The notes under the pieces: model-generated
Seen by the model: the letters and a program-made list of their open reading frames with translations, nothing else
Databases searched by the model: none
Told to the model about the DNA's origin: nothing
In this document: positions 5,840-33,467 of the stretch, piece after piece
How positions within the stretch are numbered: the stretch's first letter is position 1
Layout: each line of letters starts with the position of its first letter
Made by a program: the position numbers and the translations under genes
Assembly: GCA_937859745.1 (NCBI GenBank)
Contig: CALMAQ010000056.1
Location: 1-35,544, forward strand
Source of the DNA: an uncultured Verrucomicrobiota bacterium
GTDB lineage: Bacteria > Verrucomicrobiota > Verrucomicrobiia > Chthoniobacterales > SZAS-18
Reading direction: 5' to 3'
DNA: 35,544 nucleotides

Positions 5840-5858
5840 TGGTTTTCGCTCTCCAGCC

Positions 5859-7238: not shown

Positions 7239-7255
7239 GTTTTCCCCGGCTGTCG

Positions 7256-7272
7256 CCCGGCGCGGGATTTTT
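7256..7272 (+). terminator. Short GC hairpin with T-run after the ACT gene
   Basis: CCCG-GCG-CGGG (7256-7266) is followed immediately by ATTTTT, 18 bp after the ACT-protein stop. The position and T-run are right for an intrinsic terminator, but a 4-bp stem is weak. Confidence 0.3.
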
Positions 7273-7392
7273 GCGGCAAAGCCTACCGCCAGCGGTCGGG
7301 GACTCTGCGTAGTAGAACGGTGGCGCGCCACGCTCCGGCTTGGCCGCATCCACCGCATCATCTCCGTCGTAAACAAACTTCCTTTTACAAGT

Positions 7393-9549: not shown

Positions 9550-9709
9550 GGCGTTTGTGCCGGATGGTGGCGGTTCAGCCGGTCGGCACTATCCTCCGGA
9601 TCGGTGTCGGCGGCACAATCTCGCACGCGCGTCACGTTAGGATTTTGCGAATTGTTCGCGTGCCGGTTTGCCACCTGGTGCAGGCTTCTGTTACTAAACC
9701 GATTCGACC

Positions 9710-11581: not shown

Positions 11582-11599
11582 CACGCCACCGCGTTTTTT

Positions 11600-14570: not shown

Positions 14571-15377
14571 ATGCCGCCCGCCTCGCCTGCCGCCCCCGCA
14601 CGTACCAACGTACTGGGGGTGGGCATCAGCGTCATCAACCAGACGACGGCGCGGGAGGTCCTCTTCGACGCGGCGCGGCGCGGCCGGCGCGGCTACGTCA
14701 CTGTGACCGGCGTGCACGGCGTCACCGAGGCGCAGAGTGACCCGGCGTTCCGGGCGATCCTCAACGGCTCGCTGCTCTGCACGCCGGACGGGATGCCGAT
14801 GGTGTGGATGGGCCGGTTCGCCGGGCAGCGCGCCATCGAACGGGTGTACGGACCTGACCTGATGCTCAACCTCTGCGAGCATTCGGTCGGGGAGGGGTTC
14901 ACCCACTTCTTTTACGGCGGCAACACGGGCGTGGCGGATGAACTCAAGCGCACGCTGGAGAACCGTTTTCCCGGGCTGCGCGTGGTCGGCACGTACTGCC
15001 CGCCGTTCCGGCCGCTCAACACCGACGAGCGGGAGGATCTGCAGACGGTCGTGGACGAGCTGCGTCCCGACTTCTTCTGGGTGGGCCTGAGCACGCCCAA
15101 GCAGGAAAAGTTCATGGCCGAATACCTCCCCATTCTGTGCGGGGCGAAGATTTTCCTGGGCGTCGGCGCGGCGTTCGACATGCACACCGGCCGGGTCCGG
15201 CAGGCCCCGCGCTGGATGCAGCGCAGCGGACTGGAATGGTTCTACCGGCTGACGCAGGAGCCGAAACGCCTCGCGCGGCGTTATCTGATCAACAACCCGT
15301 TGTTCATCGGCCGGGCGGCCTTGCAGTTGTCAGGCAAAAAGAAATACCCGCTCGATTGCTCATCCTCCGCCCGGTAG
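14571..15377 (+). CDS. WecG/TagA/CpsF family glycosyltransferase (GT26)
   Basis: This 268-aa GT26 enzyme belongs to the family that adds the second sugar (such as N-acetylmannosamine or its uronic acid, or glucose) to an undecaprenyl-linked acceptor in teichoic acid, ECA or exopolysaccharide assembly. Characteristic features are the N-terminal GVGISVINQTTAREVLF, VTGVHGVTEAQSD (about 44), LLCTPDGMPMVW (about 64), and the C-terminal pair GLSTPKQEKFMAEY and GVGAAFDMHTGRVRQAPRWM. It begins 22 bp after treY and ends 19 bp before a convergent acyltransferase gene. Functionally it fits the polysaccharide locus to its right and not the trehalose genes. Donor and acceptor cannot be read from sequence, and the initiating phosphoglycosyltransferase is not in the window. 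Confidence 0.9.
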   Translation: MPPASPAAPARTNVLGVGISVINQTTAREVLFDAARRGRRGYVTVTGVHGVTEAQSDPAFRAILNGSLLCTPDGMPMVWMGRFAGQRAIERVYGPDLMLNLCEHSVGEGFTHFFYGGNTGVADELKRTLENRFPGLRVVGTYCPPFRPLNTDEREDLQTVVDELRPDFFWVGLSTPKQEKFMAEYLPILCGAKIFLGVGAAFDMHTGRVRQAPRWMQRSGLEWFYRLTQEPKRLARRYLINNPLFIGRAALQLSGKKKYPLDCSSSAR

Positions 15378-15396
15378 GACTACAGGCTTGGAAGGT

Positions 15397-16431
15397 TCAT
15401 CGAGGCGTCTGGTTGGTCCGCGACCGGAGCGACTGGGTTCGCATGCTCGGCTCAATAAAGCGGAAGGTCAAGGTCAGCGCGATAGCCTCTGCCCAGCAGA
15501 ATAGGAAGTAACCCAGCCAAGCGGCCTTGGCCGCGCCTACATGGTGGTAGACGAACAGAATGGCGATCCCATGGAGCAGGAAGAACGGAAAAGAAGCTGT
15601 GCTCAGTAGCCGGATCAAATTCAAAGCTGGCTTCCTGGTAATTACCATCGCCACACTCGAAAGCGCTACAACCACCAGCGTGACCAACAATCCACGCCAG
15701 GGCAACGACAAGACGTAAATCGCGTCTGGACCAAAGCGGGGAGCCACGGCGGTCGCAAGTACGCACGAAACGAGTGAAAAGAGCAGGAGTGCGGCGTAGC
15801 CCGCTTTGAGGTTGCGCTGCTGGCAGATCGTTTGCCCGATGATCAATCCCAGGCAGGTTTCCGGCAGCCGGAAGAGAACACTCCAATTTCGGCAGATTTC
15901 CAGCGCTGACTGCGGCCGGTACAAGAACACTGCCGAGGTAGCAGCAAGCGAGAAGGCGAATGCCGCCAAGACGATCCAGGGTGCCGGGATGCGTTTAAGT
16001 AGGCCGACGAGGAACGGGAACAATAGATATGCCTGTAGGATAAAGGGGATGAACCACATCACCTTCGATAAAAAGCGGAAGCCGAAATACTGGCTCAGGC
16101 CGGCGCTGCTGAGGACGAGTTCCAAAAAGCTGAATGGGCGGCCCAAGGCCGAGGGATAGAAGAAACTGAGGAGGAAGATTACGACATTGATCACGACGAA
16201 CATCGGGAAGACAGCCTTGAATCTGCCGACCAAATACCGGTGGTAAGACGGCAAATCGTCTGGCTGGACGGAGGAAAAACAGGTGTACGCGACGCCAGAG
16301 ATCATGATGAAACAGGCCACCGCGTACTCCCCCCACTCTGAGAATCGGTAAGTGGTGACCAGCCCGACGTGGTAGTAAAAAATGGCCGATGCGCCGATGA
16401 TGCGCCCCAGGTTGGTGATCTTTGATAGCAT
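15397..16431 (-). CDS. Acyltransferase family 3 membrane protein
   Basis: This is a polytopic membrane protein of 344 aa from the ATG at 16431; the track start 105 bases upstream adds a polar non-family leader. About ten hydrophobic helices are visible. The N-terminal pattern (LGRIIGASAIFYYHVGLV, then YAVACFIMISGVAYT) and the late RLLSTASFPFFLLHGIAILFVYHH match acyltransferase-3/OafA-like enzymes that O-acetylate or otherwise acylate surface glycans. The early family histidine is represented by FYYHVG. The classical R-x10-H signature is less clear, so the exact acyl donor is uncertain. It converges on the GT26 gene (19-bp gap), diverges from the epimerase gene, and fits a glycan-decorating role in this locus. 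Confidence 0.75.
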   Translation of the reverse strand: MLSKITNLGRIIGASAIFYYHVGLVTTYRFSEWGEYAVACFIMISGVAYTCFSSVQPDDLPSYHRYLVGRFKAVFPMFVVINVVIFLLSFFYPSALGRPFSFLELVLSSAGLSQYFGFRFLSKVMWFIPFILQAYLLFPFLVGLLKRIPAPWIVLAAFAFSLAATSAVFLYRPQSALEICRNWSVLFRLPETCLGLIIGQTICQQRNLKAGYAALLLFSLVSCVLATAVAPRFGPDAIYVLSLPWRGLLVTLVVVALSSVAMVITRKPALNLIRLLSTASFPFFLLHGIAILFVYHHVGAAKAAWLGYFLFCWAEAIALTLTFRFIEPSMRTQSLRSRTNQTPR

Positions 16432-16660
16432 GGAAGAGGCCAAGTGTCCGGGCTCCCGGCTCCGAGGTGGGGATGAGCGATAGCGAAAAAGTGCAATGCA
16501 TGCAAGGCGCAGAAATCGCCCGCCCCGTCCTGCCACGCTCCATGAGGAGGTGACGAATTCGCCACCTTGTCCATTTGGTTTCGGCTTGCCGTGGCTCTAC
16601 AAGGTGCTAAAAACGATCCTTCACGGTTGAGAATAGGTCTTGGCGAGAGAACAATTTGAA

Positions 16661-17656
16661 ATGAAAGAAGCGAACATTGTGGTCTGTGGGGGCGGAGGAT
16701 TCATCGGCGGTCATCTGATCGCAGACTTACGCCGTCAGGGAGTGACCCGTCTGCGCGCGGTGGATTTCAAGCCGATCAGCGGATGGTACCAGCACTTCGA
16801 TGACGTGGAGAACCTGGTGCTCGACTTGCAGGATCGTCAGAACTGCGAGCAGGCCGTCAACGGCGCTGGCATGGTGTACAACCTCGCCAGCGACATGGGC
16901 GGCATGGGCTTCATCGAGAACAACAAGTGCCTGTGCATGCTCAGTGTGCTCATCAACACGCATCTGCTCATGGCATCGCACAAGGCAGGCGTGGAGAAGT
17001 ATTTCTTTTCCTCCTCGGCGTGCGTGTACGCCGCCGACAAGCAGACGGACCCGAACGTCACGGCACTCAAGGAAGCGGACGCCTACCCGGCCATGCCCGA
17101 GGACGGTTATGGCTGGGAAAAGCTCTACGGCGAGCGCCTGTGCCGCCACTATACCGAGGACTTCGGACTAATGACCTGCTCGGCCCGCTACCACAACGTC
17201 TACGGCCCGTTCGGCACGTACGACGGCGGGCGGGAGAAGGCCCCGGCGGCTGTCTGCCGCAAGGTGATCTCCGCCTTGATGAGCGGTCGCCACGAGATCG
17301 AAATCTGGGGTGACGGCACCCAGACGCGATCCTTCATGTACATCGACGACTGCCTCAAGGGCACGCAGATGATGATGGCGCGCAGCGTGCCCGGGCCGCT
17401 GAACGTGGGCAGCAGCGAATTGGTGACGATCAACCAACTCGTGGACATCGTCGAGGACATCGCCGGGGTGAAGCTCAAGCGCAGCTACAACCTCAAGGCC
17501 CCCAAGGGTGTCAACGGCCGCAACAGTGACAACACGCTCATCAAGCAGTTGATGGGCTGGGAACCGTCGATCTCGTTGCGCGTGGGCATGGAAAAGACCT
17601 ACCGCTGGGTCTACGACCAGATGCAGGCTCGGCAGCCTGCACTGGCGGGGGTGTAG
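16661..17656 (+). CDS. gme: GDP-mannose 3,5-epimerase-like enzyme
   Basis: This extended short-chain dehydrogenase/epimerase of 331 aa from the ATG at 16661 (a TTG 21 bases upstream is the track start) is expected to convert GDP-D-mannose to GDP-L-galactose or GDP-L-gulose. The Rossmann loop is VCGGGGFIGGHL. Residues typical of GME and not of general epimerases are all present: NLASDMGGMGFI (about 74), SSSACVY with Cys121, DGYGWEK with Tyr150 and Lys154, FGTYDGGREKAPAA with Lys193, GDGTQTRSFMYIDD, and GRNSDNTLIK. The similarity to plant GME is strong along the chain. A bacterial GME has been characterised from the verrucomicrobium Methylacidiphilum, so the enzyme is not unexpected in this phylum. 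Here it lies inside a glycan locus, suggesting an L-galactose-type sugar in the polymer. No mannose-1-phosphate guanylyltransferase is in the window. Confidence 0.88.
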   Translation: MKEANIVVCGGGGFIGGHLIADLRRQGVTRLRAVDFKPISGWYQHFDDVENLVLDLQDRQNCEQAVNGAGMVYNLASDMGGMGFIENNKCLCMLSVLINTHLLMASHKAGVEKYFFSSSACVYAADKQTDPNVTALKEADAYPAMPEDGYGWEKLYGERLCRHYTEDFGLMTCSARYHNVYGPFGTYDGGREKAPAAVCRKVISALMSGRHEIEIWGDGTQTRSFMYIDDCLKGTQMMMARSVPGPLNVGSSELVTINQLVDIVEDIAGVKLKRSYNLKAPKGVNGRNSDNTLIKQLMGWEPSISLRVGMEKTYRWVYDQMQARQPALAGV

Positions 17657-17663
17657 CGTGGCA

Positions 17664-17701
17664 GAACCACGTCCCCCTACCGTGTGGGTAGGGGCTGGTT
17701 C
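17664..17701. terminator. Strong stem-loop between convergent genes
   Basis: Inner stem CCCCTACC (17674-17681) / GGTAGGGG (17687-17694) with loop GTGTG, enclosed by an outer stem GAACCA (17664-17669) / TGGTTC (17696-17701). It starts 8 bp after the epimerase stop and contains the stop codon of the converging gene (TAG, 17677-17679 on the minus strand). A bidirectional terminator is the simplest reading, though no long T-run follows. Confidence 0.6.
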
Positions 17702-18429
17702 CACAAAGTTTTCACCGGGTGCAGCGTCCAGGCCCCATCGCGGCGGGCGTGCTCGATCTGGTCCACGAAATCGCCCAGACTGTTGATGTGGCGGTTTTGA
17801 TCGCCCCAATCACGCAGGCGATAACCGAGGTGATGGGCGGTCGTGGGTAGATACAGTTCCAGGTAGATCGGAAATGGCTCCGTCCGGGCCGCCGTGACGT
17901 CGAAGGCCCCCCGTTTCCAAAAGCTGCCGCTACCGAACATGGAAAGCACTACCCGCCGGTCGTGCCGTACGCTGAAGCTTTCCCAGTGTTTGAAGAAGCC
18001 GGGCAAAGCCGCGTGGTAGAGGTAGTGGGGCTGGCTGGTGCCGTCCACCCTTTGGAGTTGGAAGGCCAGGACATCGGCGCGTTCCTCTTCCAGGTAGGTG
18101 AGTTGCCGTTCGTTGAAGCCCGGTGTGACCGGCAGTTGGTCGTACTCGGCGAAATGGACGTGGGTGTAGTCCCGCCCCTCCAACCAGCGAGAAACCACGC
18201 GCCAAACCCCCGTGTAGCTTTGCCGCTCCCGAGGATGTTTGACCGTCCGCAGGCGTGGATCGTCCACCAGCGTTTTGTGTGGGTGATCAAGCTGGGCAAG
18301 CAGCTTCTCGTCCCCGTTGAAGACGATGAGCACGTTCTCCGGCGGACAGTAATCGCGCCACCAAGCGAGCATCCGGTCCATCTGCGCGACGGGTTGATGC
18401 GTCAGCAGGACATTAAGGACGCGGCTCAT
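17677..18429 (-). CDS. Unrecognised protein of the glycan locus, possibly GT-A-like
   Basis: This 250-aa soluble protein belongs to no family I can name with confidence. It opens LNVLLTHQPVAQMDRMLAWW, followed by ENVLIVFNGDEKLL, which resembles the first Rossmann-like strands of nucleotide-sugar transferases. A stretch THVHFAEYDQLPVTPGF (about 94-110) could stand in for the acidic DxD metal site. SMFGSGSFWKRGAFDVTA (about 168-185) resembles the acceptor-side glycine/aromatic segment of GT-A proteins. There is no signal peptide and no membrane segment. It is the last gene of a minus-strand block after two GT4 genes and a small ORF, whose end it overlaps by 17 bp, so a role in building the same glycan is likely. 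The glycosyltransferase reading is an inference from pattern and context only. Confidence 0.75.
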   Translation of the reverse strand: MSRVLNVLLTHQPVAQMDRMLAWWRDYCPPENVLIVFNGDEKLLAQLDHPHKTLVDDPRLRTVKHPRERQSYTGVWRVVSRWLEGRDYTHVHFAEYDQLPVTPGFNERQLTYLEEERADVLAFQLQRVDGTSQPHYLYHAALPGFFKHWESFSVRHDRRVVLSMFGSGSFWKRGAFDVTAARTEPFPIYLELYLPTTAHHLGYRLRDWGDQNRHINSLGDFVDQIEHARRDGAWTLHPVKTLWNQPLPTR

Positions 18430-18673
18430 GGGGGAAGTCGGGAGCAGGATGCGTCGTGAAGCCCATTTCCTGTTTCCAGTAGGTCAAGCGCTCTTGCGGC
18501 AGGAAAACAGGACGCACGGCAGCCTCTAAGCCAATCAGGTGAACCTTGCCGCGGAAGGACACGATCAGCGCGCGGCCGAGGACCCGGCCCGTCCGCTGGT
18601 CCACGACCGGCGAGCCCAATGCCCGGGCAGCACGGACTACCAGGGTACGTAGGACCATCTTGAATCGTTCCAT
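18413..18673 (-). CDS. Small unrecognised protein of the glycan locus
   Basis: This short basic protein is 86 aa from the ATG at 18673. Its core contains DQRTGRVLGRALIVSFRGKVHLIGL (two short beta-like stretches), followed by a proline-rich end. No family is recognised. It sits between a GT4 gene and the GT-A-like gene on the same strand and overlaps the next gene by 17 bp, so it looks like a real operon member. An alternative TTG start at 18712 would overlap the upstream GT4 stop as TTGA, the classic arrangement for translational coupling, and would make 99 aa with a more hydrophobic N-terminus (LFLLFSP). The sequence does not decide between the two. Confidence 0.55.
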   Translation of the reverse strand: MERFKMVLRTLVVRAARALGSPVVDQRTGRVLGRALIVSFRGKVHLIGLEAAVRPVFLPQERLTYWKQEMGFTTHPAPDFPHEPRP

Positions 18674-18708
18674 CGCAGGGGAGAAAAGAAGGAAGAGCGT
18701 GGCGGAAG

Positions 18709-19857
18709 TCAATGCCGATCACCGTTTGGTCCGCGCAGGCTGGCCACGATGGCATCAATCCGCTCGCCGGTCAGCTTGTCAAAGTCGAACCGCCGCACCC
18801 ATGTCATGCCGTTGGCGCGTAGGCGGGCGTGCAGGTCGTTGTCGGACGCCAGAGTTTCCAACGCCCTGGCCACGGCAGCCGCGTCCGTGTAGTCCACGAT
18901 CAGCGCGTTCCCGCCGGTCACCTCGTCCATGATCGGGAGGTGGTTGACCACGCATGGCGTGCCGCAGGCCATGGCCTCGGCCACGCAGCGGCCGAACGTT
19001 TCCTCACGGCTTGCCAGGCAAAATAGACGGGCGTGGCGGTACAACGGGGCGAGCCAGCGGTCATCGATCCAGCCCAGGAACCGCACGTCGTTTCTGATGC
19101 CCAGCGCCTCCGTGTGCGCGCGGGCAGCGTCCGCGCCGCCGTGCCAGCCGCCGCCGACCATCACCAATGGACGCGCCGCGCGCCAAGCCTCCGGCAGCCG
19201 CGCGTAGCCCGCCAGCAGCCGGTCGGCCTGTTTGTACTCGTAGAAGTTGCTGACCCAGAGCAGGTAGCCTGGTTCCACGCTGAACTCCGCGTGGAGTGCC
19301 GCCGCCTCGTGCGCCGGGGCATCCGGGGTGAACTGGTCGTGCTGCAAGCCCTCGTAAGAGACGACCGTTCGGGCGTGTGCCGCCGGGAACGCCTGGAGGA
19401 ACTGATTTTCGGCGAAGCGGGAGTTGACGATGATGATCTCGGCCAGGTCCACGCTGCGGTTGACGATCAGGCGGCGGTAAACTTGCCGCGCGAAGCCGAC
19501 GCGGTTCTTGCCGCTGAGGTGTTGCAGGGAAAACAGGTGCATCGCCACCGGGAGGGATTTTCTCACCGGCACGAAGCCAACGGTGAGCAGCGCCGCCGCG
19601 CCGAGCCGCCGGGCGGCGGCCGGCACGAGGAAGTGGTCGGACAGCAAGCGCCGGGCGAGCCGGTCGTTGGCCGGGTACCGGCGCACGGCCTGCACGCGCG
19701 GATCGTCGATCCGCCAGGCTTGGCCGGGACCGGCGAAGACGATCCAATCGATGTGTGGGTAGAGCGGCAGAGCATGCGAGATGAACTCGTGGAACAGGCT
19801 GGTCAAACCTGTCTTGCGAGTTGGGTTTTCGCAGAGAATGGAGAGAGCCAGCTTCAC
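18709..19857 (-). CDS. Glycosyltransferase family 4
   Basis: This 382-aa cytoplasmic GT-B enzyme is expected to transfer a nucleotide-activated sugar with retention of configuration onto a lipid-linked glycan. The N-terminal domain is typical (KLALSILCENPTRKTGLTSLF, then IIIVNSRFAENQF). The C-terminal Rossmann domain has LLWVSNFYEYKQADRLLAGY (about 218), VRFLGWIDDRWLAPLYRHA and the EX7E-type signature SREETFGRCVAEAMACGTP (about 303-321). The first codon in frame is GTG (19857). Downstream, the small ORF begins at or near this gene's stop; upstream, another GT4 gene ends 63 bp away, so the genes form a block. The specific sugar is not predictable from these motifs. Confidence 0.9.
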   Translation of the reverse strand: MKLALSILCENPTRKTGLTSLFHEFISHALPLYPHIDWIVFAGPGQAWRIDDPRVQAVRRYPANDRLARRLLSDHFLVPAAARRLGAAALLTVGFVPVRKSLPVAMHLFSLQHLSGKNRVGFARQVYRRLIVNRSVDLAEIIIVNSRFAENQFLQAFPAAHARTVVSYEGLQHDQFTPDAPAHEAAALHAEFSVEPGYLLWVSNFYEYKQADRLLAGYARLPEAWRAARPLVMVGGGWHGGADAARAHTEALGIRNDVRFLGWIDDRWLAPLYRHARLFCLASREETFGRCVAEAMACGTPCVVNHLPIMDEVTGGNALIVDYTDAAAVARALETLASDNDLHARLRANGMTWVRRFDFDKLTGERIDAIVASLRGPNGDRH

Positions 19858-19920: not shown

Positions 19921-21204
19921 TCAAGAACCAGCCGAGAGAGAGGTGGACGTTGAAAAGACCGGTTCAAGATACTCGTGCACGCATTGCTCCAGATAGGAAG
20001 GTTCGAAATGGTGCGCGCGGCTTTTCGCCGCCCGGCATGCTCGCAGCCAAGTCCGGGGGTCTTTCATCCATTCAGCTGCCATGCGGCAACCTTGTTCCAG
20101 CCAGTCGTCTACGTTCGTGACCCGGTCGTTCAACCCGGTCTCCGCGGTGACGACGGTCGCCGCGCCGCTCAGGCCGAGGGTCATGGAGGGCAGGCCCGTG
20201 GAATAGGCTTCCACCAGCGCCAGCGACGAGGAATCGTGCATGGTGGGATAGAGATACAGATGGCTGTCGGCATACGCCTGCATCAATTGCTGTCGGCTGA
20301 CCATGCCATGAAACGTGACGTGCTCGGCCAACCCCAGGCGGCGGACTCGCGCCTGCAAAGCAGCGAGCGCCTTGCCCTGTGCGTAAACGTCCAACACGGC
20401 GTTGATGCCTCGCTGCCGCATTCGGTGCACGCTTTCCACCCCCAGGTGCATGCCTTTCCACCAGAGCGCGCGTCCCGCGCAGAGACACCGCAGCCGCTCG
20501 GGCAGCGTCGCTGCCTGTTGTTCGCGTCCGCGCAGGACCGTGGCGTCATCCGCGCCGCTGTCCTGAAAAGCGTCGGGAAAGACGACCGCCGTGCGACCTG
20601 CACCGATGGCGGTCACGGCGTCGAGCGACTCGCGCGTGGTGGCCAGCGTGATCCGCGCGTTCCTGAGTACCGCGCGCAGGTGCGGCAACACCGCGAAGGT
20701 GCGATTAATCGGCGAACGCACCGCCTCGCCGGCAATCTCTCGCCATGGCAGGCGAAGCTGCCACAGCAGCGTCCAAGGGATGCTTTCTCCTCCGCCGAGC
20801 GGGCCGAGTGTGTACGGGATACCGAGCAGGTCATAACGCGGGAGCACCCGGAACGAGCCCAGCGTGATGTGGTGCAGGCCGACGATAGGCCGGGCTCGGA
20901 TGAGCTGTCGACAAAGGTCCAGAGCCTGCGAGCACCAGCGCTGGTACGTCGGGTAGTATTGCCATGGCGGCCCGGGCGCAAAGTCCTCACCGACGGCATG
21001 CACGCGCCAGCCCCGGGGCAGGCCGCGTTCCTCGAAGTGCCGCGCGTTGCCGGGCAGCGTGAGCACTTCCAGTCGGTAAAACTTCGCCAGCGCGTTCGCC
21101 CAAACCCAACCTTTTCCGGGTTCCGATCCCATATCGGACCGGATGCCTGCGGCAACCAAGATCAAGACAGGTTTTTCGCCAGGGTCAGTCATGCAGTGCG
21201 CCAT
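19921..21204 (-). CDS. Glycosyltransferase family 4
   Basis: A GT-B glycosyltransferase of 427 aa and the first gene of the minus-strand block running to 17677. The N-terminal domain has the beta-alpha-beta opening VLILVAAGIRSDMGSEPGKGW, with the donor-domain glycine turn, and LLGIPYTLGPLGGGESIP (about 155). The C-terminal domain has LRCLCAGRALWWKGMHLGVE (about 270), EHVTFHGMVSRQQLMQAY and the EX7E-like MHDSSSLALVEAYSTGLP (about 347). In that signature the first glutamate is replaced by aspartate, which is seen in several GT4 subgroups. The start at 21204 is an ATG; a second ATG four codons later (21192) is equally possible. It diverges from the GT61 gene across a 168-bp region in which I see no clear promoter. 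Confidence 0.88.
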   Translation of the reverse strand: MAHCMTDPGEKPVLILVAAGIRSDMGSEPGKGWVWANALAKFYRLEVLTLPGNARHFEERGLPRGWRVHAVGEDFAPGPPWQYYPTYQRWCSQALDLCRQLIRARPIVGLHHITLGSFRVLPRYDLLGIPYTLGPLGGGESIPWTLLWQLRLPWREIAGEAVRSPINRTFAVLPHLRAVLRNARITLATTRESLDAVTAIGAGRTAVVFPDAFQDSGADDATVLRGREQQAATLPERLRCLCAGRALWWKGMHLGVESVHRMRQRGINAVLDVYAQGKALAALQARVRRLGLAEHVTFHGMVSRQQLMQAYADSHLYLYPTMHDSSSLALVEAYSTGLPSMTLGLSGAATVVTAETGLNDRVTNVDDWLEQGCRMAAEWMKDPRTWLRACRAAKSRAHHFEPSYLEQCVHEYLEPVFSTSTSLSAGS

Positions 21205-21372
21205 GTGAAACGCAAAGCTCTGCCACTGTCAATACCAAGTGTCTTTCGAGGGCTCTGTCCCGGCCACGATGAAGCCTGATGTCCCGGCAAAAAAGATTCC
21301 GCCCCAGCACGACATCATGTAATTTGCGCCTTGGCTGCCGAAAAAGCCTCCCGGTATCTTCCGCACGGCGAG

Positions 21373-22413
21373 ATGATCAAGTCTATCTTCACCCATCTCC
21401 GGTCCGGTGCGGCGGACGCCCGCAAGGCGCTGATCCGTTCGGCGTTCGCCGTTGCCCGGGTCGCGGGTGTGACCGTGACGAAGAAGCCGGCTCTCGAGTG
21501 GTTCCTTTCCACGACGGGGCAATCGCTCGGGCACGGTCTATACGAATTGCGCCTCGGACCCATGGTGCGCTCCCTAGAGATAAACCGGGCGGGCATCGTG
21601 CGGGTAAATCGACGCCAGTTGCTCGAAATCGACTACGGCACGACGCAGGGCCTGACCGGCTGGCGTCCGCATCAACGGATGAAGTGTTGCGTCCATCTGT
21701 GGAGCCAGCGTTGGCTGGGCTACTATCACTGGCTAATCGACGTGGCTCCAAAAATCTGCGCTGCCCAAGAGGCATATGGACGTGATCTCGCCGACTGGAA
21801 GCTGTGCTGGCCCATGGTCGGTTCCGCCTACGAGGCGCAGACCCTCGCGCTGCTGGAGGTGCCTGCCGATAGGATTGTCAACACGCAGGAGTCCGGCGGG
21901 CTCTCGGCCGAAGTACTCGCCTGCGCGCCGATCCCTTGGTGGGAGGAGCCGCCACACCCGAGGGTGCACCTGCTGCGTAAGCGCCTGGAAGCGCATCTGG
22001 CCGAACCGGACGGCACGCGCCTCTTCATCACGCGTGTCGGTACGCGCGCTTGTGTGAACCAATCGGAAGTGCTCGATGTCCTGGCCCGCTATGATTTTCG
22101 GCCCGTAGACTTCGGTACGATGCCGCTCACCGAGCAAATTCGGCTGGTTTCCACCGCCGAAACAGTCGGTGGCTTCCACGGTGCCGGTTTGGCAAACATG
22201 CTCTGGTGCCATCCCGGCACCCGCATCATCGACCTGTTGCCGCCCGACTATCAGCCAAAATGGTTCGCCAACCTGAGTTTGATGCTGGGCCTGCGCTACC
22301 ACTCCCTGGAGGCTCAGCCCGGCACCGTGCGGGAGGCGCACTGGTCGCAGATGTATGATTCCTACCGGGTGGACATCCCGGCGTTCCGGGCCGCACTGGC
22401 AAACATTTTCTGA
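21373..22413 (+). CDS. Glycosyltransferase family 61 (DUF563)
   Basis: This protein is 346 aa from the ATG at 21373; the track start is a TTG 42 bases upstream. GT61 motifs are clear in the C-terminal two-thirds: LGYYHWLIDVAPKI (about 115), LFITRVGTRACVNQSEVLDVL (about 217), FGTMPLTEQIRLVSTAETV, then VGGFHGAGLANMLWCHPGTRIIDLLPP (about 261-287). The HGAGL segment is the most diagnostic part. GT61 includes plant xylosyl- and arabinosyltransferases and many bacterial enzymes in capsule and EPS loci, mostly uncharacterised. There is no signal peptide; it presumably acts at the cytoplasmic face. It is paired with the GT4 gene 134 bp downstream on the plus strand, an island between two minus-strand blocks. 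Confidence 0.88.
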   Translation: MIKSIFTHLRSGAADARKALIRSAFAVARVAGVTVTKKPALEWFLSTTGQSLGHGLYELRLGPMVRSLEINRAGIVRVNRRQLLEIDYGTTQGLTGWRPHQRMKCCVHLWSQRWLGYYHWLIDVAPKICAAQEAYGRDLADWKLCWPMVGSAYEAQTLALLEVPADRIVNTQESGGLSAEVLACAPIPWWEEPPHPRVHLLRKRLEAHLAEPDGTRLFITRVGTRACVNQSEVLDVLARYDFRPVDFGTMPLTEQIRLVSTAETVGGFHGAGLANMLWCHPGTRIIDLLPPDYQPKWFANLSLMLGLRYHSLEAQPGTVREAHWSQMYDSYRVDIPAFRAALANIF

Positions 22414-22547: not shown

Positions 22548-23672
22548 ATGCCCCGTGTTCTCTGGTTGCCTGCGCATCCGGCGTCGGGAGCCGTCAGCAT
22601 GGACCGCTACTGGCGCGAATTGGAGCGCCAGCGCCAACGGCAAGCGCCTGCAAGGCAAGACGTGCACATCGATTGCGCCCTCGGCTCGCCACCGACGCGG
22701 AGCCAGGTAGCGGGAAGGTGGCAGCGTGCCTGGCAGAAGTACGCTGCTTACCCTCTGCTGACGAGGACGGCAAGCCATCGGTCGGGAGTGGAAACCGTCC
22801 ATGTGCTCGACCACTCCTTTGCTCATCTGTTGAGCAGCGTCCCGCGACATGGGGTGTACAAGATTGTGACGGTGCACGACTTGGCACCGTTGCGTGATCC
22901 CACCGGGCTGACCGTCCCACAGCAGCGTCGATTCCGACGTACCGTCGAGCACGTGCACGAGGCCGATCTTATCCTGGCGGATTCTCGCCACAGCGCGGAG
23001 GAAACGGTCGCTTTGCTTGGTGTCGCGTCGGAAAAAATGCGCGTGCTCCCACTGGGAGTGGATTTCGCTCAGTTCTCGACCCGGGCTGTGCATCCGGAAA
23101 GCTCCGGTCTGCCACCAAGTTTGACGCGGCGGAAGGTCGTGCTGAGCGTGGGTGCCCATATCTCCAGAAAAAACCTGGAGATCCTGCCCGAGGTTTTTGG
23201 CCAGGTGCGGGTAAACGATTTGACGCTCCTGCGGATCGGTACCGCGCTGCCGCCCGCCTTGCTGGCCGATCTGCGGTCGGTCCTGGGGGCGGGGGGCGTC
23301 GTGGAACTTGGTGCCGTGCCGGATGCCACCCTGGTCCAAGCATACCAGCGCGCTGATGCTCTGTTGTTCCCCTCGCGCATCGAAGGGTTCGGCTTTCCGG
23401 TGCTTGAAGCGATGGCCGCCGGTTGCCCGGTGGTCTGTACGAACGTCACCAGCCTGCCGGAAATCGGCGGCGAGGCAGCGTTGTACTTCGCCCCGGATGA
23501 TGCCGCCACTGCTGCCGGGCACCTGCGGCGGCTGTTGACGGATGATTTCGCCCGCGCGGCGGTCGTGACCGCCGGTCTGCAACAGGCAGCCGAGTTTTCC
23601 TGGTCGCGGCACTTCGAGCGGCTGCTCGAAGTCTACCGCGATGGCGTGGTTGTATTCCGGGCCAAGCCGTAG
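22548..23672 (+). CDS. Glycosyltransferase family 4
   Basis: A GT-B glycosyltransferase of 374 aa from the ATG at 22548; the track start is a GTG 33 bases upstream. The N-terminal domain has VYKIVTVHDLAPLRDP (about 97) and ADLILADSRHSAEETVALLG (about 129). The C-terminal domain has KVVLSVGAHISRKNLEILPE (about 193), VVELGAVPDATLVQAYQRADA and the EX7E signature SRIEGFGFPVLEAMAAGCPVV (about 274), followed by the usual SLPEIGGEAALYFAP. This subgroup, with SLPEIGGEAA, includes mannosyl- and rhamnosyltransferases. It ends 40 bp inside the 3' end of the convergent O-antigen ligase-like gene, so the two coding sequences overlap tail to tail. Confidence 0.9.
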   Translation: MPRVLWLPAHPASGAVSMDRYWRELERQRQRQAPARQDVHIDCALGSPPTRSQVAGRWQRAWQKYAAYPLLTRTASHRSGVETVHVLDHSFAHLLSSVPRHGVYKIVTVHDLAPLRDPTGLTVPQQRRFRRTVEHVHEADLILADSRHSAEETVALLGVASEKMRVLPLGVDFAQFSTRAVHPESSGLPPSLTRRKVVLSVGAHISRKNLEILPEVFGQVRVNDLTLLRIGTALPPALLADLRSVLGAGGVVELGAVPDATLVQAYQRADALLFPSRIEGFGFPVLEAMAAGCPVVCTNVTSLPEIGGEAALYFAPDDAATAAGHLRRLLTDDFARAAVVTAGLQQAAEFSWSRHFERLLEVYRDGVVVFRAKP

Positions 23673-25255
23673 CTCACCGGACGGCGTTCCGGCAAGCCGG
23701 GGAGCGGTGGGAAGTCGGGCAGGCTCTGCCAGCCATGCTCACGGCGGGCAAGGGCAGCGGCCTTCGAGACCTCGACCGCAACGCCCAGAAAGGTCCAGAA
23801 AACAATCGCGGCCATGGGACCTTCGAGGACGACCCCGACCGCCGAGGAGATGAGGATCACCCAGATGGTGCACCAATATCCCAGATCAGCCAACGGTTGC
23901 CACCCCGCCCTCACCGCGAGCGCGGCACGGATGCCGCCTGTGATGATTTGCACGGTCAGGACGGCGAAAACGAGGATGCCGATCCACCCCATCCGACCAA
24001 AAAGAGTGACGTAGAAATTATGCGCGGAGCGTAACCCGCCTGCTTCGCTCAGACGGTAGATTTCTGAGAAAGAGATGACGAAGTTGTAACCAAACCCATG
24101 ACCGAACCAAGGATCGTAGGCATTCGTTTCATCAATGAAAGTATCCCAGAGCTTGCGCCGGTAATTGTTGGTGCCGGCCTTCGTCGCGCCTAGTTCGCTC
24201 TGGTAGTTCGCGTTGCTGCCGAAGTCGACCATCGACGTTACCTTGTCAACCAACAAGGCTGTACTGCCGCCGTCCGAAGTGCTGCTGAATGTCGCGCTAT
24301 AGCCTGCAAGCACCGTCAGGCCAAGCACCACTGTCAGCGCCGGGTACAGGAAAAATCGCGGTTTGTTGGCAATGAGCATCAAGACGCTGCTCACTACCAG
24401 AGCCGCCAGCGAGGCTCGGCCCACACCGCCGACGACCAGAAAGAGATAGAACACGATCAACACGACCCGCACCCACTTCCAGCGATACATTTTTGGGCGG
24501 GTGTAGAGGATGAACACACCGGCCGCGGCGAAGGTGGTCATGATGTCGTCCTTCTGGAAAGCAAGGCTGTAGCCACCGCTCGTATCGCCGGTGCCTGTCC
24601 AGTTCAGGCTGGGAAGGAACCGTTGGGCGACGATCAGGAGCGCCAAGGCCACGAAGGAGAACTTCAGACATCCTTCCAGCACCCGCTTGGCGGCTGGTGG
24701 TGCCAGCAACTGCCGACCGAAGAAGTAGTAAACGCTGTAGTAAACCATGGCGGAGTCGCGCACGGCATCCAATTTGTATTCCTTGTAATCCGTGAGCAGA
24801 CGCACGGCCCCAAGGGCGCAGTAGAGAAAGATCACCCGCGCCATCCAGCCGCTGAAATCGGGCAATTCCCGCGCGATGGCAAAGCGAACCAGCAGGCAGA
24901 TAAAGATCGCGACCATCCCGATCTCGCCCGGGTAGAGGGGCTTAACGGGTGCCAGATCGGCGAAGCCGCGGTTGCCCACCAGATAACCCACCAGCAGCGC
25001 ACAGAGAACGGACGTTTCAAACCGGATGCCTTTGACGAACACGGTGAACATCACCAGCACGCAAAAAAGCCCCAGGATCGCACTGGGGATCAAAAACTCC
25101 TCTGTGGCGAGTTCCGAGGCCATCCACATCAGTACGCCCAAGGCGGGCAGCATCACCGCGACGGTCCTGATTCGACTATCCCAAAGCAAGGTCTGACCGG
25201 CCATAGACGCCGAAGATGAAGCAAAGCGGCCAATTTTACCAGCCGGAACTTCCAT
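23633..25255 (-). CDS. O-antigen ligase/polymerase-like membrane protein (WaaL/Wzy type)
   Basis: This polytopic membrane protein of 540 aa has roughly twelve hydrophobic segments and a large periplasmic loop between about residues 330 and 420. The loop and its flanks carry the hallmarks of the O-antigen ligase superfamily: FGHGFGYNFVISF (about 395), the conserved histidine in LRSAHNFYVTLFGRMGWIG (about 415) and preceding charged segments with arginine (NNYRRKLWD). Such proteins join or polymerise undecaprenyl-linked glycans outside the inner membrane. Ligase and Wzy polymerase cannot be told apart by sequence alone. It is the last gene of the seven-gene minus-strand block and overlaps the convergent GT4 gene. 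Both ATGs at 25255 and 25204 are possible starts; the first is used here. Confidence 0.85.
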   Translation of the reverse strand: MEVPAGKIGRFASSSASMAGQTLLWDSRIRTVAVMLPALGVLMWMASELATEEFLIPSAILGLFCVLVMFTVFVKGIRFETSVLCALLVGYLVGNRGFADLAPVKPLYPGEIGMVAIFICLLVRFAIARELPDFSGWMARVIFLYCALGAVRLLTDYKEYKLDAVRDSAMVYYSVYYFFGRQLLAPPAAKRVLEGCLKFSFVALALLIVAQRFLPSLNWTGTGDTSGGYSLAFQKDDIMTTFAAAGVFILYTRPKMYRWKWVRVVLIVFYLFLVVGGVGRASLAALVVSSVLMLIANKPRFFLYPALTVVLGLTVLAGYSATFSSTSDGGSTALLVDKVTSMVDFGSNANYQSELGATKAGTNNYRRKLWDTFIDETNAYDPWFGHGFGYNFVISFSEIYRLSEAGGLRSAHNFYVTLFGRMGWIGILVFAVLTVQIITGGIRAALAVRAGWQPLADLGYWCTIWVILISSAVGVVLEGPMAAIVFWTFLGVAVEVSKAAALARREHGWQSLPDFPPLPGLPERRPVSYGLARNTTTPSR

Positions 25256-25412
25256 CCGCTCGTCTCACGGTTGGATCAGGCTTTTGCCGGTGCCGTGCGA
25301 AGCGGGCTGTTTCCTGGCGAACGGCGAGAGGCCTGCGGATGCACGTTTACTCTGGCTCCGGGGCCGCCGAGCGATTGGTCCGTCGGCGGATCGGGTCGCT
25401 GCCGCCAGACGT

Positions 25413-26366: not shown

Positions 26367-26459
26367 CGTCAGCGAAAGGCTCGAAGAAATCGACCGCACC
26401 GTAACGGCTCATCCGGGCACTGACAAGGAGGTTGTCCCGCTCGGTACCTGACCGCTTAG

Positions 26460-27590
26460 TCAAGATGCCAGACGCCGGTAAACTTCTGCGGTTTCCGCCG
26501 CGCAACGCTCCCAGGAGAAGCGCCGCGCGTTTTCCCGGCCGAGGAGGCGTAAGGCGTCGAGGCGGGCGGAGTCCGCCAGGGTGGTCTCCAGTACGACCTG
26601 GATCGACTCGACGCTTTCGGGATCGAAGTACGCCGCCGCCTCGCCAGCCACCTCGGGCAGCGAACTGGTGCGCGCGCAGAGCACGGGACAACCCTGCGAC
26701 ATCGCTTCGAGCAGCGGAAGTCCAAATCCCTCGTAGAGCGAGGGATAAACGAACGCCGTGGCTCCGCGGTAGCAACGGCCCAGCGCAGCATCGTCGCCAG
26801 ATTGCCGGGTGACGCGTCCCTTCAGGCCGAGCGCCGTAAAACGCCGCTGCTCGGCATCACTGAAGGGGCTGCCGCCGAAGCAGACCAGCCGGAAACGCTC
26901 CCGCAAGGCCGCGGAACGTCCATAGGCCTCCAACAGGGCGGCAAAATTTTTGTACTCCCCGCGTGCCCCGACGTAGATCAGATATTCGCCGTCGCCACCG
27001 GTTCCGCGGCTCGGCGGCCCGGCGGCGGCGGGCGCGCAAAACGAGTGACCGTGATGGACGACCGTGACCTTTGCCGGGTCGACGCCTAGTAGCCGGACCA
27101 GATCGGACTTGGTTGACTCGGAAACGGCGATGAGGTGATCAGCACGGGCGCAGTTGGCGCGCAGGTAGCGGTTGACGGGGTCGCTCGCGGCGTTCAGGAC
27201 AGGGAAGCGATGACGAAATAGCTCGTGGATGAGGTCGTGGATCGTCACGACCAGGGGGCGGGAACCGATGTAGGCGGTGTCACCGTAGTAAGTTTGATGA
27301 ACGACCGCGTCGGGATGGCGCGCGGCGACCCACCCGTACCAAGCGTGGTTGAACCCCACCCGCCACGGATGTAGCGGGCCGATGCCGAAGGGAAGGTAGG
27401 CACCTGTCGTGAGGCTGGGGAGAGTACGCACCAGCTCGTTGCGGTGCAGGCCGGCGACGATGCGGGGATGTTGCCCCCTCGCCTGCAAATGGCGGGCCAG
27501 TTCGCCGAGATAGCGGCTGACCCCGCCAACCCGCTGAAGATAGAACGCCTCCGGCGTGAAGATGACTTCCACGGAACGGGGAGTGGTCAT
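26460..27590 (-). CDS. Glycosyltransferase family 4
   Basis: A GT-B glycosyltransferase of 376 aa. The N-terminal domain has the glycine-rich acceptor loop LQRVGGVSRYLGELARHLQ (about 19), VVTIHDLIHELF (about 115) and ADHLIAVSESTKSDLVRLLG (about 148). The C-terminal domain has LIYVGARGEYKNFAALLEAY (about 204) and the EX7E signature SLYEGFGLPLLEAMSQGCPVL (about 284), then SSLPEVAGEAAAYFDP. This is the same subgroup as the GT4 at 22548, often mannosyl- or rhamnosyltransferases acting on O-antigen. Its ATG (27588-27590) overlaps the stop of the upstream GT4 gene by 4 bp (ATGA), so the two are translationally coupled. Confidence 0.92.
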   Translation of the reverse strand: MTTPRSVEVIFTPEAFYLQRVGGVSRYLGELARHLQARGQHPRIVAGLHRNELVRTLPSLTTGAYLPFGIGPLHPWRVGFNHAWYGWVAARHPDAVVHQTYYGDTAYIGSRPLVVTIHDLIHELFRHRFPVLNAASDPVNRYLRANCARADHLIAVSESTKSDLVRLLGVDPAKVTVVHHGHSFCAPAAAGPPSRGTGGDGEYLIYVGARGEYKNFAALLEAYGRSAALRERFRLVCFGGSPFSDAEQRRFTALGLKGRVTRQSGDDAALGRCYRGATAFVYPSLYEGFGLPLLEAMSQGCPVLCARTSSLPEVAGEAAAYFDPESVESIQVVLETTLADSARLDALRLLGRENARRFSWERCAAETAEVYRRLAS

Positions 27591-28672
27591 GGTTCAAGCG
27601 GAAGCGGCGCTAGCGGGTCGTGGCAAATGTCTGCGGCGAATTGGTGCAGCAGGTCGCGCGCGAGCCCGTCGAACTGCTCCCAGTCGGGCAGATGCCTCGA
27701 ACGTTCCAGGCACCAGGCCGCAGCCGACTCGCGCAAGGGCGCATCGGCCAGGAGGCGGTCAAGCTGGCGGGCGAGGTCGGCGGGGTCCTGCGGATCGTAG
27801 AAACCCGGGTAATCATCCGAGCCAATCAGCTCCAGAAAATTTTCCGTGCGCGGAACGACTGCCGCGCAACCGCATGACATCGCCTCGGCCGTCGAGATCG
27901 AATAGCCTTCCACCAAGCTGGGCAGGCAGAAGATGGCGGCGCGGAAGAACTGTTCGCGGAAGGGCCCGATTGGCAGCCGGTCGGAGACTTGGACGCGGGC
28001 GCGGAGCGGCTCCGGCAACGCCTCCCAGGCCGCGCGGAAACGCTGGTCAACTTCTTCCGAAGGTCGGCTGGAAATGACGAAATGCGCCTGCCACTGTTCG
28101 TTGCGTAACCGCGGGAGGGCGTCGAGCAGAGTGATTGCTCCCTTGTGCGCGAGCAAGTAACCGTTCCAAAGGATCAGCGGCGGCGCAGCCGGAGCGACCG
28201 TCCGGTCCGGCATCTTCGTGCGGCCGGGCAGCAGCAGGTAGATGGGGGGACGCACGCCCGCTTGCCTCAGGTGGTCGTACACGTGTTGCGAGATGGTGAT
28301 CAGGGCATCGAACGAGTTGAAGAACCGGCGCTCGTCCGCCATCATTTCCGGGTGGGCGAACCATTGCGGGTGGTGAATGACGCCGAAGTGTTTGAGCTTC
28401 GGGTAGAACCGCCGGCACAAACCGATGAGCCACCGGGAAGAAAGAGGCGTTGTCGCGCATTGGAAAACCACGTCAGCCCGGCGGAAGAGAGCACGGTGGA
28501 AGAACAGCAACACAGGGCCCTGGCAGCGCAGCCGGAACCACCGCTGGCGGACGGTCGCATGGGAGATTTCGGCCAGACCTTTCCAGGCCTTGAGGAGCTG
28601 GAGATCGTAGCGGTTACCGCCGGTGGGACTTGCTGGCGGCTCGGAGGTCGTGAAAGCGGCGATAATATGCAT
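27587..28672 (-). CDS. Glycosyltransferase family 4
   Basis: A GT-B glycosyltransferase of 361 aa starting MHIIAAFTTSEPPASPTGGNRYD, where the SPTGGN segment is the N-terminal donor/acceptor glycine loop. LKHFGVIHHPQWFAHPE (about 93) and FDALITISQHVYDHLR (about 119) belong to the N-terminal domain. The C-terminal domain has LILWNGYLLAHKGAITLLDAL (about 163) and the EX7E-type SLVEGYSISTAEAMSCGCAAVV (about 259). It ends with the 4-bp ATGA overlap into the next GT4. The upstream neighbour is a GT2 gene 65 bp away. The donor sugar is not predictable. Confidence 0.9.
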   Translation of the reverse strand: MHIIAAFTTSEPPASPTGGNRYDLQLLKAWKGLAEISHATVRQRWFRLRCQGPVLLFFHRALFRRADVVFQCATTPLSSRWLIGLCRRFYPKLKHFGVIHHPQWFAHPEMMADERRFFNSFDALITISQHVYDHLRQAGVRPPIYLLLPGRTKMPDRTVAPAAPPLILWNGYLLAHKGAITLLDALPRLRNEQWQAHFVISSRPSEEVDQRFRAAWEALPEPLRARVQVSDRLPIGPFREQFFRAAIFCLPSLVEGYSISTAEAMSCGCAAVVPRTENFLELIGSDDYPGFYDPQDPADLARQLDRLLADAPLRESAAAWCLERSRHLPDWEQFDGLARDLLHQFAADICHDPLAPLPLEP

Positions 28673-28737: not shown

Positions 28738-29784
28738 TCAATCGAGCCATCTTTTCAAGCGCGCCACCGTGCCGCTGATGAGGAAACGCCCGTTCGAGCC
28801 GAGCAGTCTAAGCCGAACGCCGCGCTTTGTTAAACCCGCTTTTCCGTCCAGGGCGGTTGCCAGACGTTCGATCTCCTGCCACGACAGCCATCGCGCCACA
28901 TGGTGGAGAAAGTAGGGAAACCATCCTCTGATGACCTGACCCATCTCGATCTTCGAGGCGATTTCGCCAACCGGCAGCAACTGCCCGGCGTAACGCCGTT
29001 CGAGCCACTGCGCGAACGCGAGGAGAGCCAGCAGCTTCGGCACGGCGTTGGGGCCGGCGAGCAAAGAGGTGTTTTCCGTGCTGGTTCGCCAGTAGACGTA
29101 AGGACCGCTGATCGTCCGCAAAACGTCGCCTTCGGCGAAGGCGATCCAGGAAGCATCGTCGCTGCCCAAGGCAAAAGGGAAATCGACGAAGCCGCCGCAA
29201 CGCTCGAACGCGGAGCGTGCGAAGAGGTGTTCGGGCGCGAAACTGTTGCGCTGTCGCAGCATGCGATGGTAGGCGAACTGGAGCCCGGTCTCCGTGGCGG
29301 GAAGCGGAATGCTGACGTAGAAACACGCGCTGTGCGCATCAATGAGCGCGGTGTTGAAGCGATAAATTTGCGGATCTTCGCCTAGCTCCTGATCCCGTTG
29401 CCAAACGTTGTAGAACGCGGCAACGCAGTTTTCGCCTGCAATATCGTCGTCGGAGAAGAGCCAGATCCACGGCTCGCCATCGGTTTGCGCCACGCAGCGG
29501 TTCCATTGCTGGACCAGAGAGCGCGCTCCCCAGTTCTCATCAAAGCGAATGAAGCGCCGGCCGGTCCGCTCCTCCGTGAACACGCTGCGGAAAATTTCCT
29601 CGAGATTTTCTGTGCTGCCGTCATCGCACACGTACAATTGAAACCGTTGGTTCGTCTGCGAAGCAATCGATCGCAAAGCGGCTTGAAGAAACTGGCCTTT
29701 GTAAGCGGGTACGACGATCGCCAAGGGAAAGAGAGTCCCGGCTTTGTATGAATCAGATGTCGGCGAAGTTGCTGACTGCTTCAT
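28738..29784 (-). CDS. Glycosyltransferase family 2
   Basis: A GT-A glycosyltransferase of 348 aa. Typical motifs: LAIVVPAYKGQFLQAALRSI (about 21), LYVCDDGSTENLEE (about 50), and the metal-binding FSDDDIAGENCV (about 110). FALGSDDASWIAF (about 205) lies in the acceptor-side region and is more acidic than usual. The C-terminal 90 residues (about 250-348) are helical and basic with LERRYAGQLL and VIRGWFPYFLHHVARWLS, perhaps membrane-associating. The ATG at 29784 is the clear start. It is co-oriented with the TylF-like methyltransferase gene 29 bp upstream and the GT4 gene 65 bp downstream. Confidence 0.88.
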   Translation of the reverse strand: MKQSATSPTSDSYKAGTLFPLAIVVPAYKGQFLQAALRSIASQTNQRFQLYVCDDGSTENLEEIFRSVFTEERTGRRFIRFDENWGARSLVQQWNRCVAQTDGEPWIWLFSDDDIAGENCVAAFYNVWQRDQELGEDPQIYRFNTALIDAHSACFYVSIPLPATETGLQFAYHRMLRQRNSFAPEHLFARSAFERCGGFVDFPFALGSDDASWIAFAEGDVLRTISGPYVYWRTSTENTSLLAGPNAVPKLLALLAFAQWLERRYAGQLLPVGEIASKIEMGQVIRGWFPYFLHHVARWLSWQEIERLATALDGKAGLTKRGVRLRLLGSNGRFLISGTVARLKRWLD

Positions 29785-29813: not shown

Positions 29814-30617
29814 TCAGCCCATGGCGGCTGGTTTGAAAAGAATTCCCTGCCCGGTTGGCAAGGCAAGGATGCTCAACCCACGTTTGTCCGCGAAAGCATC
29901 AAACGCTTTTTGCTGCTCCGAATGCATGGTCTGGGTGTAATCATCAAGCAAAATGATGCCACCTGGAACCATTTGATCCCAAAAGAACTCGGCCGCGCTG
30001 ATCTCCGGCATGGTGCAATTCATGTCGAGAGACAAGTAAGCCACCGCCCGGCTGGGAACTGCGGGCAGGACATCGGGCACGTTGCCCTGGATAATTTTTA
30101 CGTTCGCGAACGCCTTAAAGATCTTGGCTACTTCTTCTGATGAATTGTTATTATAATAAGCGTAATTTTCCAACAGGCCTTTGCTGCGTTCGGCCTCACT
30201 AACATATTCGGGAACCAGCCCGGTGAAATTATCGATGAGGTAGAACTGCTTATCCAGATTCTGAAATTGGGTGTAATCGATGATGGCCCGAGAGAGCCCG
30301 CCGCGATTGACTCCGCACTCGACAAAATCCCCTGGCAATTTTGCCGCTTGCCTTCCTGCCCAGCAGGCAACATAGGCGCGCCAGCGTACCACGCTGGTGC
30401 CCCAAGAACCCGTTTGCTCTCCCAGCCGGTAGGCGCGCACAAAATTTTCGTCCTCCAGGAAAGTGGGGGAATTGGAAGTGTAAACGTTGTCTTCCGCGTA
30501 GAGAAACTCCGACTTGGGAATGATCACATATTCCTCGGGCGCAAAGCGGAAGCGCCATTTCTTGCGCAGGTTGGGCGGCAGCAGGGCGAGAATCAAGTGG
30601 CGGAAAAATCGTTTCAT
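29814..30617 (-). CDS. TylF/macrocin-O-methyltransferase-like SAM methyltransferase
   Basis: A class I SAM-dependent methyltransferase of 267 aa from the ATG at 30617 (a TTG 18 bases upstream is the track start). The SAM-binding loop is GDFVECGVNRGGLSRAI (about 95-111), followed by FYLIDNFTGLVPEY (about 125), SLDMNCTMPEISAAEFFW (about 202) and GGIILLDDYTQTMHSEQQKAFD (about 224), in the order expected for the TylF family of metal-dependent sugar O-methyltransferases. A role in O-methylating a sugar of the glycan, for example as a chain terminator, is consistent with its place between the Wzt gene and the GT genes. By eye the gene is richer in A/T runs than its neighbours (for example around 30130-30175), which may mean a different origin. 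Confidence 0.85.
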   Translation of the reverse strand: MKRFFRHLILALLPPNLRKKWRFRFAPEEYVIIPKSEFLYAEDNVYTSNSPTFLEDENFVRAYRLGEQTGSWGTSVVRWRAYVACWAGRQAAKLPGDFVECGVNRGGLSRAIIDYTQFQNLDKQFYLIDNFTGLVPEYVSEAERSKGLLENYAYYNNNSSEEVAKIFKAFANVKIIQGNVPDVLPAVPSRAVAYLSLDMNCTMPEISAAEFFWDQMVPGGIILLDDYTQTMHSEQQKAFDAFADKRGLSILALPTGQGILFKPAAMG

Positions 30618-30644
30618 GTCGGGAAGGAGTCGCAACAGGACAGA

Positions 30645-33385: not shown

Positions 33386-33467
33386 TCCCACAACTCTGGT
33401 GAACGGCTGGCATGCTGCTGACCGACGAATCTAGGTGAGCCACCTACTCCCCGCGCGCAAACGCCGC

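What the first reader, a model, noticed from the sequence alone, without database searches (positions are those of the whole stretch)
16661..17656. GDP-mannose 3,5-epimerase inside a bacterial polysaccharide locus
GME is best known from plant vitamin C synthesis. All plant-type catalytic residues (Cys121, Tyr150, Lys154, Lys193) are present. Its position points to GDP-L-galactose or GDP-L-gulose as building blocks of an extracellular polymer, a rarely documented bacterial use.
Basis: partly seen in the sequence, partly recalled or inferred. Interest (0 to 1): 0.5.

Follow-up and report, generated by a model that had tools for sequence, protein, structure and literature searches.

The report
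Bacterial GDP-mannose 3,5-epimerase in polysaccharide locus
The gene is a genuine sugar-converting enzyme of the kind plants use to make vitamin C, but this kind is widespread in soil and freshwater bacteria, where it most likely supplies an unusual left-handed sugar (L-galactose) for a cell-surface polysaccharide, so it is essentially ordinary.

Summary
Window 16661-17656 (+) encodes a 331-aa extended SDR whose closest solved relatives are plant GDP-mannose 3,5-epimerases (42% identical to Arabidopsis). It keeps every residue used to tell this enzyme from GDP-fucose synthase: S119, C121, Y150, K154, N179, K193, R223, R287. It lies in a surface-polysaccharide cluster with about ten glycosyltransferase genes, a Wzy/ligase-like gene, acyltransferases, a methyltransferase and a Wzt-like ABC ATPase, very probably in a Chthoniobacterales (Verrucomicrobiota) MAG. 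The genome also has a GDP-mannose pyrophosphorylase. At least 584 matches occur in a species-level genome set, and 15% of 388 sampled Verrucomicrobiota genomes carry it. One modest extra: a WecG/TagA (GT26) gene is its commonest immediate neighbour. Genomes with a close WecG relative are enriched for the epimerase (22/39 versus 57/388) but not for GDP-fucose synthase. The window's clade is separated by a long branch from the plant enzyme, so the product (L-galactose, L-gulose or D-altrose) remains inferred. New member of a known kind.

The parts
16661..17656 (+). GDP-mannose 3,5-epimerase (GM35E/GME), 331 aa
   Evidence: best PDB relatives are plant GME; all diagnostic residues present
14571..15377 (+). 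WecG/TagA/CpsF (GT26) glycosyltransferase; recurrent partner of GME
   Evidence: PF03808 E 2.6e-58; adjacent to GME in many genomes
15397..16431 (-). membrane acyltransferase (Acyl_transf_3), on the opposite strand between wecG and GME; open frame runs to 16536, the likelier ATG is at 16431
   Evidence: PF01757 E 4.4e-20
17677..18429 (-). predicted GT-A-fold glycosyltransferase, no Pfam or NCBIfam match
   Evidence: pLDDT 86; Foldseek probability 1.00 to GT-A enzymes, TM 0.4-0.6
18413..18712 (-). small conserved protein (99 aa) beside the 17677 gene
   Evidence: homologue next to the 17677 homologue in 5 other loci; no Pfam match
18709..19857 (-). GT4 glycosyltransferase
19921..21204 (-). GT4 glycosyltransferase
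21331..22413 (+). GT61 glycosyltransferase
   Evidence: PF04577
22515..23672 (+). GT4 glycosyltransferase
23633..25255 (-). Wzy_C / O-antigen ligase-like membrane protein
   Evidence: PF04932
25413..26399 (-). GT2 glycosyltransferase
   Evidence: PF00535
26460..27590 (-). GT4 glycosyltransferase
27587..28672 (-). GT4-type glycosyltransferase
28738..29784 (-). GT2 glycosyltransferase
29814..30635 (-). TylF-like methyltransferase
   Evidence: PF05711
30645..31943 (-). Wzt-like polysaccharide-export ABC ATPase (432 aa)
32158..33345 (+). membrane acyltransferase (Acyl_transf_3)
   Evidence: PF01757

Best explanation
The gene encodes a bacterial GDP-mannose 3,5-epimerase (EC 5.1.3.18). Bound NAD+ oxidises C4 of GDP-D-mannose (Y150/K154/S119). 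The C121/K193 pair, with R287 lowering the cysteine pKa, removes and returns protons at C5 and C3, and C4 is then reduced. The main product is GDP-L-galactose, with GDP-L-gulose and GDP-D-altrose as minor products. A glycosyltransferase of the surrounding cluster, possibly the linked GT26 (WecG-type) enzyme or one of the GT4/GT2/GT61 enzymes, builds the L-sugar into a surface polysaccharide, which is acylated, methylated and exported. Shown here: the enzyme family, the residues, the gene neighbourhood, the presence of a GDP-mannose pyrophosphorylase, and the recurrent wecG link. Inferred: activity, product ratio, which transferase uses the product, and the polymer composition.
For: Closest solved structures are plant GME, E 1e-83 to 3e-86, far ahead of GDP-fucose synthase. 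Residues S/C/Y/K/N/K/R/R match AtGME S143, C145, Y174, K178, N203, K217, R243, R306 and are invariant in 113 relatives; published criteria separate GM35E (Cys/Lys/Arg) from GDP-fucose synthase (Cys/His/Lys). Mechanism and products follow PMC8787198. About 16 kb of polysaccharide genes follow. The genome has a mannose-1-phosphate guanylyltransferase on C22, and a separate gmd-fucose synthase pair on C149 makes a GDP-fucose role redundant. WecG, glycosyltransferases and sugar-nucleotide enzymes also flank GME genes in other genomes and phyla.
Against: No biochemical test. In a quick tree the window's clade is split by a long, well supported branch from the plant enzyme and from a 50%-identical sequence that is probably of Methylacidiphilum type, so specificity could have shifted. 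No L-galactose- or L-gulose-specific transferase is recognisable. A Wzm permease was not found next to the Wzt-like ATPase.
Confidence: 0.85

Rival explanations
1. The enzyme works mainly as a single epimerase (C5 to GDP-L-gulose, or C3 to GDP-D-altrose), and the polymer carries L-gulose or D-altrose rather than L-galactose.
For: Characterised GM35E enzymes release both as by-products. The bleomycin homologue BlmG is thought to make NDP-L-gulose. The window clade is distinct from the plant enzyme.
Against: All acid/base residues for both epimerisations are kept; known enzymes give GDP-L-galactose as the main product.
Confidence: 0.1
2. It is a misassigned GDP-fucose synthase or another SDR (GalE-like) acting on a 6-deoxy or UDP sugar.
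For: Same superfamily; NCBIfam's best hit is GDP-fucose synthase, but at 117 bits against a cut-off of 500.
Against: Lys193 and Arg287 instead of His/Lys; best structural relatives are GME; a bona fide gmd-fucose synthase pair is elsewhere in the genome.
Confidence: 0.03
3. The enzyme feeds ascorbate (vitamin C) synthesis, as in plants.
For: Same reaction as in the plant pathway (PMC8787198).
Against: The gene lies in a polysaccharide cluster. I could not search for GDP-L-galactose phosphorylase: no model under the accessions tried.
Confidence: 0.01

Closest known systems
Methylacidiphilum fumariolicum GM35E (MfGM35E, I0K0X9), PMC6678494
   Same: Verrucomicrobiota; same enzyme family and catalytic residues; glycosyltransferase and methyltransferase nearby; LPS role proposed
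   Different: Probably outside the window's clade: the likely equivalent L136 is 50% identical to the window protein (identity of L136 inferred)
Arabidopsis GDP-mannose 3,5-epimerase (2C54/2C59/2C5A/2C5E)
   Same: 42% identity and identical active-site residues
   Different: Plant role in ascorbate and cell-wall sugars; one-residue indel and different residues after the catalytic Cys motif (CVYAADK versus CIYPEFK)
BlmG (bleomycin) and the GM35E activity of A201A biosynthesis
   Same: Bacterial GM35E-type enzymes thought to supply L-gulose or L-galactose
   Different: Natural-product clusters rather than surface polysaccharide; sequences not compared here
GDP-L-fucose synthase (GMER/Fcl)
   Same: Double 3,5-epimerisation of a GDP-4-keto sugar by a related SDR
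   Different: Uses Cys/His/Lys and a preceding dehydratase; 31% identical paralogue on contig C149 of this genome

Membership tests
GDP-mannose 3,5-epimerase (GM35E) | GxxGxxG/A NAD-binding motif | tested here: met
   Glycine motif aligned to that of At, ending in G16 where At has Ala
GDP-mannose 3,5-epimerase (GM35E) | Catalytic triad S, YxxxK (S143, Y174, K178 in At) | tested here: met
   S119, Y150, K154
GDP-mannose 3,5-epimerase (GM35E) | Acid/base pair Cys-Lys (C145, K217 in At), Lys not His | tested here: met
   C121, K193, invariant in 113 relatives
GDP-mannose 3,5-epimerase (GM35E) | Cys-acidifying Arg (R306), diphosphate Arg (R243), Asn (N203) | tested here: met
   R287, R223, N179
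[quoted passage not shown]
   Needs purified protein
GDP-L-fucose synthase (GMER) | His as catalytic base and Lys as Cys-acidifier | tested here: not met
   Lys193 and Arg287 instead
GDP-L-fucose synthase (GMER) | NCBIfam equivalog cut-off (500 bits) | tested here: not met
   117.3 bits
Surface-polysaccharide biosynthesis locus | Multiple glycosyltransferases plus polymerase/ligase and export genes | tested here: met
   GT4 x5, GT2 x2, GT61, GT26, Wzy_C, Wzt-like ABC ATPase
Surface-polysaccharide biosynthesis locus | Complete Wzx/Wzy or Wzm/Wzt export set in the same cluster | tested here: inconclusive
   Wzt-like ATPase present; ABC2 permeases only on other contigs; Wzx not searched

The most novel reading that the evidence does not exclude
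The wecG-GME pair is a dedicated module: a GT26 subfamily evolved to use the GDP-L-hexose made by its neighbour (no GT26 enzyme known to me uses a GDP-sugar). The window's GME clade would then be the main bacterial route to L-galactose- or L-gulose-containing surface polymers.
Probability: 0.1. Interest if true: 0.45.

Novelty: new member of a known kind. Interest (0 to 1): 0.17.

Why it matters
It adds a well-resolved example to a known but biochemically undersampled bacterial enzyme family. If the wecG link is functional, it would point to a transferase for a rare L-sugar and a way to predict from genomes alone which bacteria make L-galactose- or L-gulose-containing polymers.

Tried and rejected
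(1) GDP-fucose synthase misassignment: rejected by residues, NCBIfam cut-off and a separate gmd-fucose synthase pair. (2) The unannotated neighbour at 17677-18429 as a GME-specific partner: it occurs in only 7 of 388 genomes, 3 of them with GME (P 0.07), and in two of those it lies tens of kb from GME; kept only as a GT-A-fold protein of the same cluster. (4) GDP-L-galactose phosphorylase search: accessions tried are not in the library. (5) Control for the wecG link: GDP-fucose synthase is not enriched with the close wecG subfamily (21/39 versus 174/388, P 0.15), although a more distant wecG subfamily lies 0.8-2.8 kb from GDP-fucose synthase in 8 genomes of the class. A first count (24 of 41) had let in two genomes with partial hits near GME; it was redone with a clean score cut-off (22 of 39). 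(6) ORF 25284-26423 (+), first taken as a gene: it is antisense to a real GT2 gene at 25413-26399. (7) The careful tree did not finish; only the quick tree is used. (8) Literature searches for L-galactose or L-gulose in bacterial polymers with this enzyme found only the two Gevaert/Beerens papers and a cyanophage paper that annotates such a gene.

Full report
What was checked. The ORF at 16661-17656 is real and complete. phmmer against the PDB puts plant GDP-mannose 3,5-epimerases first (8sg0 E 2.7e-86, 2c59 E 4e-84); the next family, GDP-fucose synthase, is about 60 orders of magnitude weaker. Pfam gives only general families such as Epimerase and GDP_Man_Dehyd. NCBIfam has no equivalog that passes its cut-off, which may explain why such genes are annotated just as 'NAD-dependent epimerase/dehydratase', as in the plasmid records.

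Catalytic residues. Aligned to Arabidopsis GME, the protein has S119, C121, Y150, K154, N179, K193, R223 and R287 at the positions of S143, C145, Y174, K178, N203, K217, R243 and R306; all eight are invariant in 113 relatives. The published criteria (PMC8787198) separate this enzyme from GDP-fucose synthase by Lys instead of His as base and Arg instead of Lys as the cysteine activator. Both are met here.

Genome and locus. The window is contig C56 of a 4.13-Mb, 91% complete MAG. The epimerase lies at the start of about 16 kb of surface-polysaccharide genes: five GT4, two GT2, a GT61, a Wzy_C/ligase-like protein, a methyltransferase, a Wzt-like ABC ATPase and an acyltransferase, with a GT26 (WecG/TagA) gene and another acyltransferase just before it. 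The GT26 gene follows a run of three GH13 genes (glgX-, treZ- and treY-like) of glycogen/trehalose metabolism. The genome has a mannose-1-phosphate guanylyltransferase-like protein on C22 and a gmd plus GDP-fucose synthase pair on C149.

How common it is. It is present in 13 of 57 close relatives and in 57 of 388 sampled genomes of the phylum, patchily, as expected for an accessory polysaccharide gene. In the quick tree the window pairs with a Chthoniobacterales sequence (L021, 77% identical). The large bacterial clade that holds it is separated by a long, well supported branch from Arabidopsis GME and two divergent sequences, one of which (L136, 51% identical to Arabidopsis, from a one-contig genome of about 2.25 Mb) may be of Methylacidiphilum type (the identification of L136 is inference). 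So the assayed enzymes are probably not inside the window's own clade.

The wecG link. Among 135 ORFs immediately flanking epimerase genes, the commonest Pfam family is Glyco_tran_WecG, with 22 ORFs. In the phylum sample at least 12 of 67 epimerase genes have a wecG gene within about 4 kb, nine of them within 220 bp. Of the 39 genomes with the best wecG matches (E 7e-69 or better), 22 carry the epimerase, against 57 of 388 overall (P 8e-11, not corrected for shared ancestry). GDP-fucose synthase shows no such enrichment (21 of 39 against 174 of 388, P 0.15). The orientation is often wecG then epimerase on one strand with a gap of tens of bases, as in G023/L036, L010 and G032. In the window the pair keeps its order and strand, but an acyltransferase gene on the other strand lies between them. 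This supports a shared pathway; it does not show that the GT26 enzyme uses GDP-L-galactose, since the GT26 enzymes I know of use UDP-sugars (own knowledge). A more distant wecG subfamily sits near GDP-fucose synthase in eight genomes, so the association may be with L-sugar loci more broadly.

A neighbour without annotation. The gene at 17677-18429 (-) has no Pfam or NCBIfam match. A model from seven homologues has mean pLDDT 86, and Foldseek finds GT-A glycosyltransferases with probability 1.00 but moderate TM-scores (0.4-0.6). A 99-aa gene (18413-18712) accompanies it in five other loci. Its co-occurrence with the epimerase is not significant.

What is known. Gevaert et al. [quoted passage not shown] The 2022 review (PMC8787198) gives the LPS role as a bacterial function and revises the mechanism. 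Bleomycin and A201A pathways are linked to the activity.

Verdict. A correctly recognised, ordinary member of a known bacterial enzyme family in an ordinary kind of locus. Shown: family, residues, neighbourhood, distribution and the wecG link. Inferred: activity, product and polymer composition.

Noticed in passing
window 5808-6707 (+): Microbial rhodopsin, nearest solved relatives xanthorhodopsin (3ddl) and 9jtq/4hyj. By my reading of RYMDWAVTTPLLLLK the D85/T89/D96 positions are D/T/K, an unusual Lys at the proton-donor site.
   Followed up: partly
window 17677-18712 (-): Conserved pair of unannotated genes: a predicted GT-A-fold protein and a 99-aa partner, found together in five other loci of the phylum.
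   Followed up: partly
window 14571-17656: An acyltransferase gene on the opposite strand (lower GC3, 0.70) separates wecG from the epimerase, a pair that is tightly adjacent in many relatives.
   Followed up: partly
window 7138-14548 (+): Run of a glgX-like debranching enzyme and two further GH13 proteins (probably treZ and treY) directly upstream of the polysaccharide genes.
   Followed up: no
window 30645-31943 (-): Wzt-like ATPase of 432 aa with a long C-terminal part but no ABC2 permease gene beside it; permease candidates lie on other contigs.
   Followed up: partly
window 34496-35544 (-): DnaA gene running to the window and contig end, next to an HNH-type small ORF at 33435-33788.
   Followed up: no
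G230, G303, G306, G328, G357, G368, G425, G267: A more distant WecG subfamily (about 36-40% identical) lies 0.8-2.8 kb from GDP-fucose synthase, parallel to the wecG-GME link.
   Followed up: partly
L055, L025, L047: Contigs labelled Klebsiella pneumoniae or Proteobacteria carry epimerases that nest closely among Verrucomicrobiota ones; probably mislabelled bins.
   Followed up: no
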